Shown: one piece after another, positions 19,345 to 24,286 of the stretch
How positions within the stretch are numbered: the first letter of the stretch is position 1
How the letters are laid out: each line of letters opens with the position of its first letter
Assembly: GCF_004661485.1 (NCBI RefSeq)
Contig: NZ_PQVH01000016.1
Location: forward strand, 1-64,000
Reading direction: 5' to 3'
Source of the DNA: Methylotenera oryzisoli
GTDB lineage: Bacteria > Pseudomonadota > Gammaproteobacteria > Burkholderiales > Methylophilaceae
DNA length: 64,000 nt
Program-made: the position numbers and the translations under genes
Notes under the pieces: generated by a model
The model's input: only the letters and a program-made list of their open reading frames with translations
Told to the model about the DNA's origin: nothing
Database searches by the model: none

Positions 19345-19364
19345 TTTCGGCCCAAAGCAGTCAT
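19345..19364 (-). repeat. Left 20-bp boundary repeat
   Basis: TTTCGGCCCAAAGCAGTCAT, the exact reverse complement of 23242-23261. The sequence TGCTTT-CGGCCC-AAAGCA here (19342-19359) is itself a 6-bp hairpin. Confidence 0.75.
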
Positions 19365-19394
19365 TAAATGTATCTCATGACGCAAAAATAAGTA

Positions 19395-19880
19395 TTAATT
19401 TGCGAGTGCTTTCTCGTCGTCGGCGCTCAGTTCGTCCAATACTGAGCGTGCCGGACGCGGTGCACCGAGGTGTAGGTAACGGAGTTCATCCATAAAGGCA
19501 CTCCAAAGTGAAGGGCCTCCCTTTTCCAGCCGCTCGGCCCGCAAAGATGCTTCCTTACTCGGATGTGTATGCCGAAGACCCCATGCAGCCATCTGTGCTA
19601 GCAGAGGGACAAGCTGTATGGCCGCTTCCGTGAGGCTATAGATACCTTTCTGCTGATGATTCGGATCAGGAGATCGTGTCAACAGGCCTGACGCGGCCAG
19701 GTGCTTCAGCCGGCTTGCGAGGATGTTCGAAGCAATGCCTTCCTCGTTTTGCTCCAGCAAGTTGCCATAGCTACGTCGATTCCCGAACATGACATCGCGT
19801 ATAACGATCAGACTCCAGCGGTCGCCGATCTGCTCAAGCGTCAGGTTGATCGGGCAGCCCGATCGTCTTGTTTGTTGCAC
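19395..19880 (-). CDS. HxlR-family winged-helix transcription regulator
   Basis: A 161-residue regulator. Conserved features are an N-terminal cysteine in RRSGCPINLTLEQIGDRWSL, RRSYGNLLEQNEEGIASNILASRLKHL forming the recognition helix region, and the GIYSLTEAAIQLVPLLAQMAAWG wing and dimer helix. It starts with GTG behind a good AAAGGAGAA site. HxlR proteins usually respond to electrophiles, often through the N-terminal cysteine, and control adjacent genes. It diverges from the metallo-hydrolase gene. Two identical-type palindromes lie in the 277-bp spacer on top of its own likely promoter. Confidence 0.92.
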   Translation of the reverse strand: MQQTRRSGCPINLTLEQIGDRWSLIVIRDVMFGNRRSYGNLLEQNEEGIASNILASRLKHLAASGLLTRSPDPNHQQKGIYSLTEAAIQLVPLLAQMAAWGLRHTHPSKEASLRAERLEKGGPSLWSAFMDELRYLHLGAPRPARSVLDELSADDEKALAN

Positions 19881-19902
19881 AGCAATTCTCCTTTAATTTC
19901 CA

Positions 19903-19955
19903 CTTGCATTATGCAAGCATTAGGAATAATATACAACCACTTGCACTTTGCAAGT
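19903..19955. promoter_or_regulatory. Tandem palindromic operators, probable HxlR sites, with the regulator promoter
   Basis: CTTGCA-TTA-TGCAAG at 19903-19917 and ACTTGCA-CTT-TGCAAGT at 19939-19955 share the form CTTGCA-N3-TGCAAG, with centres 37 bp apart. On the minus strand, TTGCAA at 19948-19953 and TATTAT at 19926-19931 with a 16-bp spacer form a plausible promoter for the regulator gene. One operator covers its -35 and the other lies downstream of its -10, the arrangement expected for autorepression. Confidence 0.75.
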
Positions 19956-20106
19956 TAATAGAGATGCTAGCGGATCGACAAATTAATCGAGCATGTTTGC
20001 GGCTTTTATCCCTGGTACGGCGTCAATTCGGCCGCTCAGGTAGTAGCCGGAAAGGTGGCAACCACAACACGTCACGATGAACCGACGTTCTGCTAAAGAT
20101 CAATAC

Positions 20107-20128
20107 GTATGTACGTGTGCGTACATAC
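20107..20128. promoter_or_regulatory. 9-4-9 perfect palindrome upstream of the metallo-hydrolase gene
   Basis: GTATGTACG-TGTG-CGTACATAC, 30 bp before the ATG at 20158. Its sequence is unrelated to the CTTGCA operators, so it may be the site of a different regulator (TetR- or MarR-like in form) not encoded in the window, or a leader hairpin. Confidence 0.6.
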
Positions 20129-20157
20129 CTCACCATACACAATAGATAGGAAACACT

Positions 20158-21141
20158 ATGAAACTCTCTACCATCACTTCGCGTACCTTGCTCGCGGTGT
20201 CGTTAGCATTCGCTAGCACCTTAGTTGCTGTAGTACCGGCCCAAGCTGCTGCACCGATGCAGCACAAGCAGGTTGCCGGCTTCTATCGCACGATGATTGG
20301 CGACTATGAAGTTACCGCTCTCCATGACGGTGGCGGCCTAATTGATTCAAATCTATTGCATGGCGACCCGGCACTCATCCAGTCCCTATTGGCTCGCTCC
20401 TTCGAAAGCGACCCCAAGAATGTCTCTGCTACCGTCCAAGGCTACCTCGTCAACACCGGATCCAAGCTTGTTCTCATCGATACTGGTTCAGGCGGTCACT
20501 GGGGGCCTCCCACTTTGGGTAATCTCGTGCAGAATCTGAAGGCCTCCGGCTACAAGCCGGAGCAGGTTGATTTGGTGCTGCTAACCCATCTTCACGGTGA
20601 CCATGCTGGCGGAATCTACAAAGACGGCAAACGCGTTTTCCCGAATGCGACCGTGATGATGAAGAAGGCCGACGCCGACTTCTGGCTGTCGAAGGAAATC
20701 ATGGCCAAGGCCCCGGAAGATGCAAAGGTCTTCTTCAAAATTGCACAAGATGGGGCAGCGCCTTATATGGCTGCAGGTAAATGGAAGACTTACGAAGGCA
20801 TGGACGAAATCGCCCCCGGCATTGCACCTTATGCCATTCCTGGGCACACACCAGGCCACACTGGCTACATGATTTCCTCGAAGGGTCAGTCTCTGCTGGT
20901 CTGGGGCGACGTAGCTCATGTCGGGGCCGTCCAGATGCCACACCCGGAAATTAGCATTGTGTTCGACTCGGACAGCGAATCGGCAGTCAAAACACGTGAA
21001 GCTCTTATGGTGAAGCTCGCTACGGACAAGACCATGATTGCTGCAGCTCACATGCCGTTCCCTGGTCTTGGGCGTCTTCGCGAAGCTGACAACGGCGTTG
21101 GCTACGACTGGGTGCCGGTGACCTTCTTTAACCTGAAGTGA
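20158..21141 (+). CDS. Exported metallo-beta-lactamase-fold hydrolase
   Basis: A 327-residue protein with a clear Sec signal peptide (about residues 1-30, ending AQA-A). Zinc ligands are THLHGDHAGG (around residues 142-151), PGHTPGHTGY (around 225), the aspartate in WGDVAHVG and a late histidine in AAAHMPFPG. The metal site is therefore complete. The pattern resembles the lactonase/hydrolase subgroup of the MBL superfamily rather than true beta-lactamases. A GATAGGAA ribosome site precedes the ATG. It is the first gene of the rightward cassette and probably acts in the periplasm on a small ester, lactone or similar compound. The substrate is unknown. Confidence 0.9.
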   Translation: MKLSTITSRTLLAVSLAFASTLVAVVPAQAAAPMQHKQVAGFYRTMIGDYEVTALHDGGGLIDSNLLHGDPALIQSLLARSFESDPKNVSATVQGYLVNTGSKLVLIDTGSGGHWGPPTLGNLVQNLKASGYKPEQVDLVLLTHLHGDHAGGIYKDGKRVFPNATVMMKKADADFWLSKEIMAKAPEDAKVFFKIAQDGAAPYMAAGKWKTYEGMDEIAPGIAPYAIPGHTPGHTGYMISSKGQSLLVWGDVAHVGAVQMPHPEISIVFDSDSESAVKTREALMVKLATDKTMIAAAHMPFPGLGRLREADNGVGYDWVPVTFFNLK

Positions 21142-21142
21142 G

Positions 21143-21415
21143 ATGAACCATGACTTAAAGGACCCGCGCATCACACCCATGTTCGCCGACATGCACGGTT
21201 TTCCTCCACTGCTCATCCATGCCGGAAGCGACGAAGTACTTCTAGACGATGCGCTGGAAATTGACCGCAAGGTTCGCGCGGCAGGCGGCGAGTTGCATCT
21301 TGAGGTCTGCCGGGAGATGCTGCACGTCTGGCACATTCAGACAGGCTCTTTGCCTCAGGCCCACGACGCGCTGCAGAGAGCCGGCGAGTTTCTCATCGGG
21401 CACCTCGAGAGGTAG
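21143..21415 (+). pseudogene. C-terminal remnant of an alpha/beta-hydrolase (hormone-sensitive-lipase type)
   Basis: Ninety residues starting DLKDPRITPMFADMHGFPPLLIHAG. They match the final third of HSL-family esterases: GSDEVLLDDA carries the catalytic aspartate and MLHVWH the catalytic histidine. The HGGG oxyanion loop and the GDSAGG nucleophile elbow are absent. The preceding gene stops only 2 bp before this frame's ATG, so there is no room for the missing 200 or so residues. A deletion that joined the metallo-hydrolase gene to the end of an esterase gene explains this. It could still be translated but should lack esterase activity. Confidence 0.8.
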
Positions 21416-21454
21416 CATGCGCGCGCACTCTGCGAAGACGCAGACACTCGATAT

Positions 21455-21515
21455 GAGATTGTAATGACTACTGACAACACATTAGATAGGAGATTGCAAT
21501 GACTACTAACACCAA
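21455..21515 (+). repeat. Duplicated translation-start region before the NTF2-like gene
   Basis: The segment at 21455-21480 (GAGATTGTAATGACTACTGA and following bases) is repeated with a few changes from 21490. Each copy has a ribosome-site-like stretch and ATGACTACT. The first copy encodes a 12-codon frame (ATG at 21464) whose TGA overlaps the true ATG at 21499. It may be a coupling leader or the scar of a lost gene. Confidence 0.6.
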
Positions 21516-21909
21516 CACGCTGGGAACGGCATGGATGCAAATCGTCATGAAGAAAGGAACCAGCGACTTCGCGACGTCGTTTACCGCTGACGCCAGCCTT
21601 CAGACCTCGGCACTCAGTAAAGCAGTGATCGGCCCGACACTCATCGGGGCATTCTTTACCGCGACGAGTACGATGTACGAACACTTCGTGTTCACTGCGG
21701 AGACGGTTGACGGTGCGAAGACTTACCTTGAGTGGGATGCCATCCACGATGGCAAGCCAGTCGCTGGAGCCACCATCATCACTCGTAATGAGTCTGGACT
21801 TATCGCCAACATCAAGCTTTTCCAGAGCCCGTTTCCCATCGTTCGTGAGTTCTCGTCTGGCCTCAAGGAGCGACTCGAAGGAACACTCGACCAGGACTTT
21901 TTTAGCTAA
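21499..21909 (+). CDS. NTF2-like (SnoaL-fold) protein
   Basis: A 136-residue protein with the size and alternating pattern of the NTF2/SnoaL fold: ADASLQTSALSKAVIGPTLIGAFFTATSTMYEHFVF near the middle, then YLEWDAIHDGKPVAGATIITRNESGLIANIKLFQSPFPIV, the usual paired C-terminal strands. Such proteins bind small hydrophobic ligands and act as isomerases, cyclases, hydratases or simply carriers. No catalytic residue can be assigned with confidence. An AGGAGATTGCA ribosome site precedes it. It belongs to the accessory cassette. Confidence 0.75.
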   Translation: MTTNTNTLGTAWMQIVMKKGTSDFATSFTADASLQTSALSKAVIGPTLIGAFFTATSTMYEHFVFTAETVDGAKTYLEWDAIHDGKPVAGATIITRNESGLIANIKLFQSPFPIVREFSSGLKERLEGTLDQDFFS

Positions 21910-21970
21910 GCCGGGAAACAGCTCACGTCATCGCCTCATTTAACCTGAACAACACAAAAAGGTAACACTC

Positions 21971-22384
21971 ATGCCAATATTTCACGCCTACATTCCGGCT
22001 CAAAAGTTCTCCAGCGAAGAAAAGCGAGCTCTGGCAGATGCCTTAAATCTCGCGCTTCATGAAGCCATGGATACGCCGATGGATGACCGTTTCGTCATCA
22101 TCAGTGAGCACAAGGACGATGAGTTCTTCATCCATCCGACTTTTCCTGACCTGAAGAGATCCGACAAGCGCATGCTCGTAACGGTGACGTCCGGCACGAG
22201 CAGGACGGTGGAGCAGAAACGCAAGCTCGCGAAGTTGGTCACCCGATACGTAGTAGAAAAGGTTGGCGTCAGCCAAGACGATGTCACCCTGCTGATGTAT
22301 GCTATTCCCTTGGAGAGCATGAGCTTCGGCGGTGGCAAGCTGGTCTCAGACATCGACCTTTCTATGCCTTGGGTAAATAAGTAG
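21971..22384 (+). CDS. Tautomerase-superfamily protein
   Basis: A 137-residue protein that begins Met-Pro, leaving Pro1 as the catalytic base after Met removal, which is the hallmark of the superfamily. MPIFHAYIPAQKFSSEEKRA and a second half TVTSGTSRTVEQKRKLAKLV suggest two fused 4-oxalocrotonate-tautomerase-like beta-alpha-beta units. Members tautomerise or dehalogenate unsaturated acids. An AAAAAGGT ribosome site lies upstream. Placement beside NTF2-like and flavin genes suggests degradation or detoxification of an unsaturated or aromatic compound; this is inference. Confidence 0.85.
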   Translation: MPIFHAYIPAQKFSSEEKRALADALNLALHEAMDTPMDDRFVIISEHKDDEFFIHPTFPDLKRSDKRMLVTVTSGTSRTVEQKRKLAKLVTRYVVEKVGVSQDDVTLLMYAIPLESMSFGGGKLVSDIDLSMPWVNK

Positions 22385-22493
22385 GAAGACAAAGCTGAAG
22401 CGGGGTAGCGTAATTGACTTGAAACGGATATTTCATTCGTTTCTGAAGCGTGGTGGCTGTATTCCTTGCGCCCCTACCAAAAGAGGTAAAACT

Positions 22494-23111
22494 ATGACCG
22501 ACTGGCATTTCTACGAACCGGCGCAGGGGCATTCCCTGCGTCACGATCCGCTTAACGCCATCGTCGCTCCGCGACCGATCGGCTGGATCAGCACAGTCTC
22601 TAACGACGGCGTGCGAAACCTTGCGCCCTACAGCTTCTTCAACCTGTTCAGCTACAAGCCGCCGATTGTCGGCTTTTGCTCGCTTGGTGCGAAGGACTCG
22701 CTCGCCAACGCGCGTGACACCGGCGAGTTCGTCTGGAATCTGGCGACGCGAGAGCTCGCCGAGGCGATGAACACCTCCGCGGCGATGGTGCCAGCGAACG
22801 TAGATGAGTTCGAGTTAGCCAAGTTGGAGACGCTGTCTTCTGCCAAGGTGCGGCCATCGCGCGTTGCGGCTAGCCCGGTGCAGTTCGAGTGCGTGGTCAC
22901 CCAGATCGTGCAGCTTGAGGCGCAGGGCGGCACGGCGCTCCCGGCGTGGCTGGTGTTGGGGGAAGCAGTAGCGATCCACATTAACAGGCAACTGATCAAA
23001 GACGGTGTGTACCAGACTGCGCAGGCGCACCCGATCCTGCGCGGCGGTGGGCCGGCCGACTACTACGAAATCGGCGCGGGGCAGCTCTTCACGCTTGAGC
23101 GACCGGGGTGA
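22494..23111 (+). CDS. Flavin reductase-like / DIM6-NTAB family FMN-binding protein
   Basis: A 205-residue split-barrel flavoprotein with PLNAIVAPRPIGWISTVSNDG, NLAPYSFFNLFSYKPPIVGF and KDSLANARDTGEFVWNLAT, the FMN-binding pattern of the flavoprotein-oxygenase/flavin-reductase group. The ATG at 22494 follows an AGAGGT ribosome site. A longer frame starting at a TTG (22419) adds unconserved residues and is not used. It may supply reduced flavin to a partner oxygenase, but none is encoded next to it. Last gene of the cassette, clearly GC-rich. Confidence 0.88.
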   Translation: MTDWHFYEPAQGHSLRHDPLNAIVAPRPIGWISTVSNDGVRNLAPYSFFNLFSYKPPIVGFCSLGAKDSLANARDTGEFVWNLATRELAEAMNTSAAMVPANVDEFELAKLETLSSAKVRPSRVAASPVQFECVVTQIVQLEAQGGTALPAWLVLGEAVAIHINRQLIKDGVYQTAQAHPILRGGGPADYYEIGAGQLFTLERPG

Positions 23112-23507
23112 TTGACTTGGCGTTGAGCGACCTGAGCAGAAGGGTGAAAGGCGCGAGCTGTCGCTTAGCTAATTCGGGGGCAACCTAATAGATAAAACAG
23201 TACATTTCACATGTCATTAATGAGGGTTGAACTATTTCTGGATGACTGCTTTGGGCCGAAACTGGCTACTGGTTCGATATAACGCCATAATAATAAAAGC
23301 CCTTATATGGACTCTTGTTACTTGTTGAAATCTAATTTTTTGAGAAAAATATAGAAATCAGTGAGAACCTACACACTTGCAATCCATAGCAAGCTAAAAG
23401 TTGCATCCTAATCTACACTGCAAGCTTAAGCACCCATCTACTCATAACGCGATATCATATCTCACTATGCTAGCGTAAATATGCATCTATGACGCAAGCC
23501 TACCGAC
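23112..23507. other. Intergenic stretch at the right cassette boundary
   Basis: No supported gene. GC-rich sequence ends near 23185 and AT-rich host-like sequence begins; the right copy of the boundary repeat lies at 23242-23261. The rest to the ompW terminator shows no convincing frame, promoter or RNA gene. Confidence 0.6.
23242..23261 (+). repeat. Right 20-bp boundary repeat
   Basis: ATGACTGCTTTGGGCCGAAA, inverted relative to the left copy at 19345-19364 and identical over all 20 bases. Confidence 0.75.
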
Positions 23508-23541
23508 AATAAAAAAAGCCCCTGCTACGAGTAACAGGGGC
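23508..23541 (-). terminator. Rho-independent terminator of ompW
   Basis: GCCCCTG/CAGGGGC stem at 23518-23541 with a run of T on the minus strand (AAAAAAA at 23511-23517 on the plus strand). Confidence 0.85.
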
Positions 23542-23596
23542 AAACGTGGAGGCCTACAAACTTGTTAAATGACTGAGTATTAACTCATCACTATAT

Positions 23597-24286
23597 TTAG
23601 AATTTTTTACCGATACCGATACCAAATACCCATGGGTTGATATCTAGTGAGTCAATTTTTGTCCAGCCACTTGCTGTCTTCAATTTAACGGTTGTATCAA
23701 TCGTCACGTATTTAACGTCAGCATTAATCAACCAGCCGTCTTTCAAGTTAACATCAACACCAGCTTGCAATGCATAACCCCAGCTATCGTTATCCACTTT
23801 GATTTTTGAACCAGCTAAGGCATTTTGTCTAATGTTAAGCTTTTTATCCAAGAAGTTAGTGTAGTTAATACCAGCACCCACATATGGATCGATGGTTTGG
23901 TCAGGATTAAAGTGCCATTGTGCAGTCAATGTTGGTGGCAAAGCATCTACGCTACCCAATAATTGATTACCAACTGTTGCGTTGGCATCACCTTTGATAC
24001 TCACATCATGTTTAGAGCCAGTCGCCAAGATTAATTCAGCAGCGATGTTTTTTGTGATGTAGTAAGAAATATCCAGCTCAGGAATCGTGTGGCTGTCCAC
24101 AGACAACTCAGCACCCGGTGACATTACGTTAGCTACGTTTTTGTTAACGGTTTTACCCAATTTACTATCTTCATTTGGGCTAACATTAGCAGCACGCACA
24201 CGCACTACCCAGTCACCTGCTTCGGCTTGCGCTAACATTGGGGCAAATACAGCAGCGATTGCTAACACTAATACTGACTTCTTCAT
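23597..24286 (-). CDS. ompW: OmpW-family outer membrane protein
   Basis: A 229-residue precursor with the signal peptide MKKSVLVLAIAAVFAPMLAQA. The mature part starts GDWVVRVRAANVSPNEDS, a typical OmpW opening, and continues with PTLTAQWHF, DPYVGAGINYTNF and a C-terminal aromatic GIGIGKKF that fits beta-barrel insertion. OmpW forms an eight-strand barrel with a hydrophobic channel. The ATG at 24286 has GGAGAG upstream; a longer frame to 24379 would run through the promoter and is rejected. An FNR box and a perfect -10 lie upstream, matching the known anaerobic control of ompW in enterobacteria. Confidence 0.93.
   Translation of the reverse strand: MKKSVLVLAIAAVFAPMLAQAEAGDWVVRVRAANVSPNEDSKLGKTVNKNVANVMSPGAELSVDSHTIPELDISYYITKNIAAELILATGSKHDVSIKGDANATVGNQLLGSVDALPPTLTAQWHFNPDQTIDPYVGAGINYTNFLDKKLNIRQNALAGSKIKVDNDSWGYALQAGVDVNLKDGWLINADVKYVTIDTTVKLKTASGWTKIDSLDINPWVFGIGIGKKF

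What the first reader, a model, noticed from the sequence alone, without database searches (positions are those of the whole stretch)
19345..23261. Regulated accessory cassette: secreted MBL hydrolase, NTF2-like protein, tautomerase and flavin reductase under an HxlR regulator
Six genes of foreign composition form a compact, divergently regulated unit between two housekeeping genes that each have their own terminator. The enzyme mix (hydrolase, tautomerase, flavin-dependent step, NTF2-like carrier or isomerase) suggests stepwise breakdown or detoxification of an electrophilic or lactone-like compound. I know of no named system with this combination.
Basis: partly seen in the sequence, partly recalled or inferred. 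Interest (0 to 1): 0.75.

Follow-up and report, generated by a model that had tools for sequence, protein, structure and literature searches.

The report
Mobile self-regulated lactone-hydrolysis gene module
A bacterium has picked up a self-regulated block of genes, probably for breaking down ring-shaped ester compounds, that occurs in unrelated bacteria, and here it is bordered by a matched pair of short inverted sequences of a kind that also borders other shared gene blocks in related bacteria.

Summary
The cassette is real, and the given coordinates are exactly the ends of a perfect 20-bp inverted repeat. It is a shortened copy of an eight-gene operon, hxlR | mbl-hsl-ntf2-tau-flr-abh-ech, found whole or in part in 14 other loci of three phyla at 79-96% protein identity and in none of 186 other family genomes searched. 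Five genes are intact; the sixth ORF is a dead esterase remnant. A paired operator occurs in 12 of 12 regions where hxlR adjoins mbl. The hydrolase is of the dihydrocoumarin hydrolase/methyl parathion hydrolase family, with the dihydrocoumarin-hydrolase state at all five switch positions. I favour aromatic lactones or esters as substrate, not acyl-homoserine lactones.

The unexpected part is the boundary. Half-sites of this kind lie at identity breakpoints of other regulator-plus-stress modules in the family (both ends of one type, one end of two more) and, in related form, of a hydrolase-bearing block in two Pseudomonas species. No recombinase is identified, and no second bounded copy of the window module was found. 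Verdict: reader partly right; the boundary is the novel part.

The parts
19345..19364 (+). left terminal half-site, arm of the perfect 20-bp inverted repeat
   Evidence: same kind of half-site lies at ends of other modules
19395..19880 (-). HxlR-family regulator, 161 aa, one N-terminal Cys (Cys9) present in all 13 aligned copies (window and 12 loci)
   Evidence: (PF01638, 58.6 bits)
19903..19917 (.). operator 1, palindrome CTTGCATTATGCAAG
   Evidence: also D2
19940..19954 (.). operator 2, palindrome CTTGCACTTTGCAAG, 37 bp from operator 1
   Evidence: also D2
19904..19953 (.). overlapping divergent promoter-like elements: + strand TTGCAT-17-TAATAT (19904-19932, read by eye); - strand TTGCAA-16-TATTAT (19953-19926)
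   Evidence: minus-strand one (2 promoter-like sites found in the region against 4.0 in shuffles, so weak alone); the plus-strand one was not listed there and is read
20158..21141 (+). metallo-beta-lactamase-fold hydrolase of the dihydrocoumarin hydrolase / methyl parathion hydrolase family, 327 aa; N-terminal signal-like segment read by eye
21143..21415 (+). remnant: last 90 aa of a hormone-sensitive-lipase-type esterase; about 628 bp deleted (my arithmetic from the alignment blocks), among them the part with the catalytic serine
21499..21909 (+). NTF2/SnoaL-like protein, 136 aa
21971..22384 (+). tautomerase-superfamily protein with Pro after Met, nearest solved relative FG41 malonate semialdehyde decarboxylase (E 2e-9)
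22494..23111 (+). flavin reductase-like protein, 205 aa
23242..23261 (-). right terminal half-site, arm of the perfect 20-bp inverted repeat

Best explanation
This is a horizontally acquired, self-regulated accessory module. Function: it is a shortened copy of a conserved eight-gene operon. HxlR probably sits on two 15-bp palindromes that overlap the divergent promoters and shuts off both hxlR and the operon; an electrophile or the substrate, perhaps through Cys9, releases it. The exported metallo-hydrolase then opens aromatic lactones or aryl esters of the dihydrocoumarin type outside the cytoplasm; the NTF2-like protein, the tautomerase and the flavin protein process the products inside. In complete copies two serine esterases and an enoyl-CoA-hydratase-like protein take part as well; here one esterase is a dead remnant and the last two genes are missing. 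Mobility: in this genome the operon probably entered or moved as a unit bounded by inward-facing half-sites, the kind that lies at the ends of other regulator-plus-stress modules in the family. Shown here by sequence: conserved operon, horizontal spread, conserved operator, enzyme family and switch residues, half-sites as ends of some other modules. Inferred: repression, inducer, substrate, order of steps, and movement of this particular copy by the half-sites.
For: Operon: relatives of the six window ORFs in 14 other loci at 79-96% identity, all 14 with MBL and NTF2-like genes; eight genes complete in the standard order in 4 of 14, and with hxlR moved in 1 more. Horizontal: hosts are labelled in three phyla and the MBL tree mixes them, though only 2 of 14 inner branches are well supported. 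In the genus, 8 of 51 other genomes give any MBL match, the best-scoring at 38% identity; 0 of 186 other family genomes give an NTF2 match; 15 of 15 fetched congeneric hemN-ompW stretches (of 51 congeners) lack an insertion. Regulation: paired palindromes in 12 of 12 intergenic regions where hxlR adjoins mbl, the window included (10 of 12 with both exact, 11 of 12 at 37 bp spacing); none in L012 and L015, which have no hxlR there; degraded in L016, where hxlR has moved. Enzyme: OPHC2 E 9e-96, reconstructed dihydrocoumarin hydrolase (5hif, 6c2c) E 3e-86; Leu72, no 193 insertion, His258, Ile271, Phe273, read from the alignments against the list in PMC8222346 (passages). Old yellow enzyme in the held flank of 23 of 82 MBL loci, 22 of them within 4 kb. 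Boundary: 12 of 43 cross-genome alignment ends lie within 20 bp of a half-site against 0.31 expected, largest of 5000 shuffles 3; over 100 bp, identity 0.99-1.00 inside and 0.20-0.63 outside the ends of the 7.8-kb old-yellow-enzyme module.
Against: No activity was measured. OPHC2 turns over dihydrocoumarin only modestly, and its authors think it may not be a lactonase, esterase or phosphotriesterase by nature, so dihydrocoumarin may only mark the class of substrate. Of the 23 loci with an old-yellow-enzyme gene, 13 share one arrangement in Oxalobacteraceae, and the four complete operons (L011, L013, L014, L089) have none in the held flank. The half-site is not at the operon ends in the 14 relatives, so it did not travel with the operon over long distances. 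No second copy of the window module bounded by the sites was found, so its boundary is inferred from other modules; of those, only one type shows half-sites at both ends, and 31 of 43 alignment ends are not at a site. At one end of that module in G003 similarity runs on for about 143 bp past the site. None of the six ORFs is a transposase or recombinase. No empty site with a scar was recovered. The window copy may work poorly without its esterase, second hydrolase and hydratase.
Confidence: 0.6

Rival explanations
1. An organophosphate-pesticide degradation cassette: the hydrolase is a methyl parathion hydrolase.
For: Methyl parathion hydrolase 1p9e matches at E 1e-80 and OPHC2, isolated as a phosphotriesterase, at 9e-96.
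Against: All five positions that turned dihydrocoumarin hydrolase into methyl parathion hydrolase are in the older state. The operon copies are diverse (median dS 0.38 between relatives for MBL), which I take to be too much for a recent pesticide trait.
Confidence: 0.1
2. A quorum-quenching cassette that destroys acyl-homoserine lactones.
For: Best NCBIfam match is the AidB lactonase model (199 bits).
Against: That score is far under the curated cut-off of 360; AiiA and AttM models score 52 and 40 bits. OPHC2 hydrolysed none of the tested acyl-homoserine lactones detectably (PMC3817169 passages).
Confidence: 0.07
3. A general electrophile or quinone stress operon with no dedicated catabolic substrate; the enzymes are broad detoxifiers under a thiol-sensing HxlR regulator.
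For: N-terminal Cys in 13 of 13 HxlR copies, as in thiol-sensing members such as YodB (recalled); old-yellow-enzyme genes near 23 of 82 MBL loci, GST and aldehyde dehydrogenase genes near the Agrobacterium copy; other modules with such ends carry stress functions.
Against: The signature enzymes are an exported lactonase/esterase-family hydrolase and, in complete copies, two serine-esterase-family proteins, which fits ester or lactone substrates better than quinones.
Confidence: 0.3
4. The inverted repeat is not a module end but a dispersed palindromic repeat (for example a transcription signal) that happens to lie on both sides of a gene block which entered by ordinary recombination.
For: The left copy is close to a short full palindrome on its own; such palindromes are dispersed in the family; most alignment ends (31 of 43) are not at a site; a related site pattern is not enriched over its reversed control in 82 other loci (11 against 20).
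Against: Perfect over 20 bp at exactly the two ends and, at 2 mismatches or fewer, nowhere else in this genome; half-sites are identity breakpoints at both ends of one other module type, at one end of two more, and in related form at both ends of a Pseudomonas block; neighbouring sites face inward in 20 of 30 cases where chance gives a quarter (stretches partly selected).
Confidence: 0.25

Closest known systems
Dihydrocoumarin hydrolase / methyl parathion hydrolase / OPHC2 family (metallo-beta-lactamase fold)
   Same: Sequence family, metal-binding motif, signal-like N-terminus, dihydrocoumarin-hydrolase residues at the five switch positions
   Different: Here inside a conserved HxlR-regulated operon; the passages read describe the enzymes and not such an operon
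HxlR/YodB-type thiol-sensing repressor with divergent operon (YodB recalled)
   Same: Family, N-terminal Cys, divergent gene, palindromes over the promoter-like elements
   Different: Palindrome CTTGCAN3TGCAAG in a pair 37 bp apart and the target operon; inducer unknown
7-hydroxycoumarin catabolism hcdDEFG of Pseudomonas mandelii 7HK4 (PMC7913881, abstract and passages)
   Same: Reduction of a coumarin to a dihydrocoumarin followed by hydrolysis; an FMN-reductase-superfamily gene (hcdG) in the cluster; the authors looked for the hydrolase and had not established it
   Different: Reductase is of alcohol-dehydrogenase type; no HxlR, NTF2-like, tautomerase or metallo-hydrolase gene is named in the passages read
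pdif (Xer) modules of Acinetobacter plasmids and integron gene cassettes (both recalled)
   Same: Accessory modules bounded by short inverted sites, adjacent modules sharing a junction, no transposase inside
   Different: Site unlike dif as recalled; modules carry several genes with their own regulator; recombinase unknown
Tn7-like transposons
   Same: A TnsA/B/C/D-TniQ set lies beside one such module in this genome
   Different: Its TnsA-side end shows no half-site, no tns relative is in the window, and the other fetched family loci gave only one weak TnsB match of 27%

Membership tests
Dihydrocoumarin hydrolase (DHCH/MPH/OPHC2) family | Full-length similarity and the dinuclear metal-binding motif HxHxDH plus later His/Asp ligands (ligand positions beyond HxHxDH recalled) | tested here: met
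   E 9e-96 to 1e-80 over about 300 residues; THLHGDH, GHTPGH, WGD, AAHMPFPG aligned with the solved proteins
Dihydrocoumarin hydrolase (DHCH/MPH/OPHC2) family | DHCH state at positions 72, 193, 258, 271, 273 | tested here: met
   5 of 5 in the older state, read from the alignments against the list in PMC8222346
Methyl parathion hydrolase proper | Derived residues l72R, 193S insertion, h258L, i271T, f273L | tested here: not met
   0 of 5
Dihydrocoumarin hydrolase (DHCH/MPH/OPHC2) family | Hydrolysis of dihydrocoumarin | not testable with these tools
   needs purified enzyme
AHL lactonase (AidB, AiiA) | NCBIfam equivalog cut-off | tested here: not met
   199.4 of 360 bits (AidB), 51.6 of 375 (AiiA)
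HxlR regulators | Pfam HxlR domain over cut-off | tested here: met
   58.6 bits against 20.8
Thiol-sensing HxlR regulators (YodB type, recalled) | Conserved N-terminal Cys that senses electrophiles | tested here: inconclusive
   Cys9 in 13 of 13 copies; NCBIfam RrpB redox regulator model 44.9 of 175 bits, below cut-off; sensing itself not testable here
HxlR regulators | Binds the divergent operators | not testable with these tools
   conservation only
Malonate semialdehyde decarboxylase | Pro1 and two catalytic Arg (residues recalled) | tested here: inconclusive
   Pro after Met present; of the two Arg of the 2aag enzyme one aligns with Gly and one with Arg; FG41 enzyme scores best
Hormone-sensitive-lipase esterase | Intact nucleophile region (GxSxG type, recalled) | tested here: not met
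   only the last 90 of 297 residues remain
Tn7-like transposon | tns genes inside the element and matching ends | tested here: not met
   no tns relative in the window; no half-site at the TnsA-side end of the Tn7-like set in contig C11; the other end of that set was not defined
Insertion sequence or composite transposon | Transposase inside, target-site duplication | tested here: not met
   none of the six ORFs matches a transposase; no direct duplication beside the ends printed, judged by eye
Integron gene cassette | attC site and promoterless gene | not tested
   attC was not searched for; the module has its own regulator and operators, unlike a typical cassette (recalled)

The most novel reading that the evidence does not exclude
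Inward-facing half-sites (CGGCCCAWAGCNGWCATT and close variants), often abutted as junctions with a 17-nt spacer, define a class of transposase-less mobile modules in which each module is a regulator-plus-stress unit: metal efflux with a two-component system, NO detoxification with an Rrf2 regulator, old yellow enzyme with dehydrogenases, catalase-like with MarR, and this HxlR lactonase operon. They line up in arrays like cassettes, jump between genera, occur in the window's family and, in a related form, in Pseudomonas, and are moved by an unidentified recombinase acting in trans.
Probability: 0.4. Interest if true: 0.85.

Novelty: new variant of a known kind. Interest (0 to 1): 0.6.

Why it matters
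For the enzymes: the natural role of the dihydrocoumarin hydrolase lineage, the stock from which a pesticide hydrolase evolved (PMC8222346, passages), is not settled (the OPHC2 paper calls its native substrate unknown), and a conserved regulated operon with a readable operator makes inducer and substrate directly testable. For genome evolution: if the half-sites are module ends, they give a simple sequence handle to find, delimit and count self-regulated stress modules that move without carrying their own transposase, and to hunt for the enzyme that moves them.

Tried and rejected
1. That the inverted repeat belongs to the operon everywhere: rejected. At up to 5 mismatches in 20, 13 of the 14 relatives have no copy in the held stretch, and L016 has two 5-mismatch hits, not at the operon ends (the L022/L023 hits of that call led later to the Pseudomonas block). 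A search for an exact 15-bp inverted repeat within 1.5 kb of the operon ends found none in 13 relatives (L015 not included); direct repeats of about 150 bp were seen in L018 and L021 and not followed up. Integrase-core genes were counted in 11 of the host genomes but not placed relative to the operon, so that call decided nothing.

2. That the Tn7-like set in contig C11 is the mover: not supported.

3. Empty site of another module (G173, beside a conserved gene): the right-hand gene is found in 12 of 15 genomes of that genus, but the left neighbours differ in the 8 stretches fetched, so no clean empty site.

4. Spread of the half-site: 0 of 368 other genomes of a class-wide sample at 1 mismatch in 21; 0 viral contigs with the exact junction; short-query plasmid searches gave only weak matches, E 0.4 or more, one Rhizobium region looked at without result. 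The right flank 23100-23610 has no plasmid match. The site pattern is not enriched over its reversed control in 82 relatives (11 against 20).

5. Structure of the NTF2-like protein: AlphaFold2 model of low confidence (mean pLDDT 46.6); not searched further.

6. Literature: no paper in the library holds HxlR, tautomerase and flavin reductase together, or gene cassette, inverted repeat and Methylophilaceae together; sequence-string searches gave only papers on unrelated subjects by their titles; searches showed nothing on such modules in the rows listed (10 of 308, 12 of 79, 1 of 1). Only the open library was searched, so absence from print is not shown.


Full report
What is there. The flanking genes are hemN and an OmpW gene. 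The interval is richer in GC than the rest of the window, 54.3 against 45.8%. Its two ends are the arms of a perfect 20-bp inverted repeat.

The 90-aa ORF is not a gene of its own. It matches only the last part of hormone-sensitive-lipase models, and relatives carry the whole 297-aa esterase between the hydrolase and the NTF2-like gene. Alignment blocks before and after overlap by about 12 bp at 21146-21157, which fits one deletion of about 628 bp. The part with the catalytic serine is gone.

Relatives. A search of one genome per species with the hydrolase confirmed 169 relatives and kept the best 80. Thirteen of these 80 (L009-L021), and a region of an Agrobacterium plasmid found by DNA similarity (L089), carry neighbours from the same operon. 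Of these 14: hydrolase and NTF2-like gene 14, whole esterase 13, HxlR 12, full tautomerase 8 (besides, L015 is cut by the contig end, L019 has an internal gap and L010 a fragment), full or nearly full flavin reductase 8 (L010 a fragment), a second alpha/beta hydrolase 7, an enoyl-CoA-hydratase-like gene 6. The standard eight-gene order is complete in L011, L013, L014 and L089; L016 has all eight with hxlR at the other end; L021 lacks only the esterase; L017 has a changed order. Hosts include Acinetobacter, Pseudomonas, Variovorax, Ralstonia, Duganella, Geomonas and a MAG called Deltaproteobacteria. The hydrolase tree places the window beside the Agrobacterium copy (support 91/87) in a set with Geomonas, Acinetobacter and two Pseudomonas, but only 2 of its 14 inner branches are well supported. 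In the window's own group the operon is alone: in the genus 8 of 51 other genomes give any hydrolase match, the best-scoring at 38% identity; 0 of 186 other family genomes match the NTF2-like protein; 15 of 15 fetched hemN-ompW stretches lack an insertion. The family is probably Methylophilaceae; that is my inference, no call names it.

Selection. Median dN/dS of the window copy against relatives is 0.11 for HxlR, 0.13 hydrolase, 0.17 NTF2-like, 0.12 tautomerase, 0.13 flavin reductase and 0.16 for the esterase remnant, against 0.16, 0.17, 0.22, 0.11, 0.11 and 0.11 among relatives (8 to 14 relatives per gene). This argues against long decay. The remnant is slightly higher than in relatives, but it is short and the difference small.

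Regulation. Two palindromes CTTGCAN3TGCAAG lie between the divergent genes, at 19903-19917 and 19940-19954. Including the window, 12 intergenic regions have hxlR beside the hydrolase gene: all 12 have the pair, 10 with both copies exact, 11 with 37-bp spacing (L020 has 38; L009 has two mismatches in one copy and L017 one). L012 and L015, with no hxlR there, have none, and L016, with hxlR moved, has degraded ones. The palindromes overlap promoter-like hexamers in both directions (minus strand, plus strand by eye). A Cys near the N-terminus is present in 13 of 13 HxlR copies. I infer an autorepressing, ligand- or thiol-released switch; no binding was tested.

Enzymes. The hydrolase is nearest to OPHC2 (E 9e-96), reconstructed dihydrocoumarin hydrolase (3e-86) and methyl parathion hydrolase (1e-80). 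PMC8222346 (passages) lists five changes that made methyl parathion hydrolase out of a dihydrocoumarin hydrolase; read from the printed alignments, the window protein has the older state at all five. For OPHC2 the best tested substrate was dihydrocoumarin, acyl-homoserine lactones were not hydrolysed detectably, and, as the efficiency was modest, the authors think that the native substrate is unknown and the function may be another (PMC3817169, passages). Of 82 hydrolase loci, 23 have an old-yellow-enzyme gene in the held flank of up to 8 kb, 22 within 4 kb (some flanks are shorter); 4 of the 23 were checked by Pfam and all 4 confirmed. Thirteen of the 23 are one arrangement in Oxalobacteraceae (facing genes, end to end), but others differ: directly upstream in the same direction (L049, L050), in the place of hxlR (L012), beyond hxlR (L010), to the left of the operon (L017, L019), and in a Pseudomonas block (L022, L023, L090). 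Reduction of an unsaturated lactone followed by hydrolysis is chemically sensible and is the proposed route for 7-hydroxycoumarin in Pseudomonas mandelii, where the hydrolase was not established (PMC7913881, abstract and passages). Against it, the four complete operons have no such gene in the held flank; this genome has three elsewhere. The tautomerase is closest to FG41 malonate semialdehyde decarboxylase, the flavin protein to nitrilotriacetate monooxygenase component B, and also matches 2-nitrobenzoate nitroreductase. Their steps are not assigned.

The boundary. The half-site occurs at up to 2 mismatches at 35 places in 19 of 187 family genomes, with 1 match of the reversed control. It is also found paired as GCTTTGGGCCG-17 nt-CGGCCCAAAGC (16 distinct places in 7 of 187 genomes at up to 3 mismatches, control 0). 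In the window's genome a near copy starts a 7.8-kb block with an old yellow enzyme and a luciferase-like oxidoreductase (Pfam), dehydrogenases and two regulators (by eye). This block is 92.6% identical to one in another genus (G166) and 94.8% to one in G003, with a partial copy in G014. Against G166 the homology starts 9 bp outside the left half-site and ends at the outer base of the right one. Over 100 bp, identity against G166 is 0.99 inside and 0.20 and 0.36 outside; against G003 it is 1.00 and 0.99 inside, 0.25 outside on the left but 0.63 on the right, where similarity runs on for about 143 bp. Over 16 contig stretches, 12 of 43 distinct alignment ends lie within 20 bp of a half-site, against a mean of 0.31 and a largest value of 3 in 5000 shuffles. 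These 12 come from three module types: 7 from the old-yellow-enzyme module, 2 from a 6.9-kb block and 3 from a 1.7-kb block; the last two show a site at one end only. Neighbouring sites more than 100 bp apart face inward 20 times, outward 4, same way 6 (stretches partly selected). One contig (G166 C15) holds three site-bounded segments in a row: two-component system with RND efflux; Rrf2 regulator with NO reductase, NnrS and flavohaemoglobin; and the old-yellow-enzyme module. Others carry MarR with catalase-like and GST genes, or LysR with an EamA-type transporter; for these I have no second copy to show breakpoints.

Outside the family, two Pseudomonas species share a 12.5-kb block at 98.5% that holds a 68-69%-identical hydrolase, an alpha/beta hydrolase, a short-chain dehydrogenase and an old yellow enzyme. 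Its ends fall within 10 bp of inward-facing sites of a related sequence, CGACCCATAGCTGCC and, inverted, CGGCCAATAGCTGCC. Ungapped identity over 100 bp is 0.77 inside and 0.37 outside on the left, 1.00 inside and 0.23 outside on the right. So two different hydrolase-bearing blocks are bounded by sites of one kind. With two cases this may be coincidence, and the site pattern is not enriched in the loci as a whole.

What moves them is unknown. A Tn7-like gene set lies beside the old-yellow-enzyme module in this genome (TnsA, TnsC, TnsD and TniQ over cut-off; the TnsB fragment only a weak rve match under cut-off), but its TnsA-side end lacks the half-site, and the other family loci fetched gave only one weak TnsB match. 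No target duplication is visible by eye at the ends printed.

Verdict. The cassette is a real, conserved, horizontally spread and regulated operon, most likely for aromatic lactones or esters, partly degraded here. As an operon it is a new variant of a known kind. The half-site modules are the more novel part and rest on three module types in one family and one block in Pseudomonas.

Noticed in passing
own genome contig C11 81306-89087 (L183, L187): 7.8-kb module with old yellow enzyme, luciferase-like oxidoreductase, dehydrogenases and two regulators (the last by eye), shared with two other family genomes and in part with a third, ending at half-sites.
   Followed up: yes
own genome contig C11 89977-97946 (L187, L188): Tn7-like transposition genes TniQ, TnsD, TnsC, TnsB, TnsA beside that module; element ends not defined.
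   Followed up: partly
L136 and L186, G166 C15 25102-47052: Three regulator-plus-stress segments in a row, separated by 52-bp junctions of two half-sites.
   Followed up: partly
L022 and L023 3204-15742: 12.5-kb block shared by two Pseudomonas species with differing flanks, ends near related half-sites; part of it is on plasmid pBS1141 next to an IS3 transposase.
   Followed up: partly
L018 near 7023 and 10476; L021 near 6920 and 12573: The operon is flanked by direct repeats of roughly 150 bp in these two genomes.
   Followed up: no
window 19395-23111: Median synonymous distance to relatives is higher for HxlR and hydrolase (0.52, 0.60) than for tautomerase and flavin reductase (0.29, 0.25), so the copy may be a mosaic.
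   Followed up: no
L012 6796-7845: In Geomonas an old-yellow-enzyme gene lies directly upstream of the hydrolase where hxlR is otherwise found, and the operators are gone.
   Followed up: no
window 21444-21513: Two tandem copies (83% alike) of a 35-bp stretch end at the start of the NTF2-like gene and repeat its ribosome-binding-site-like and ATG region.
   Followed up: no
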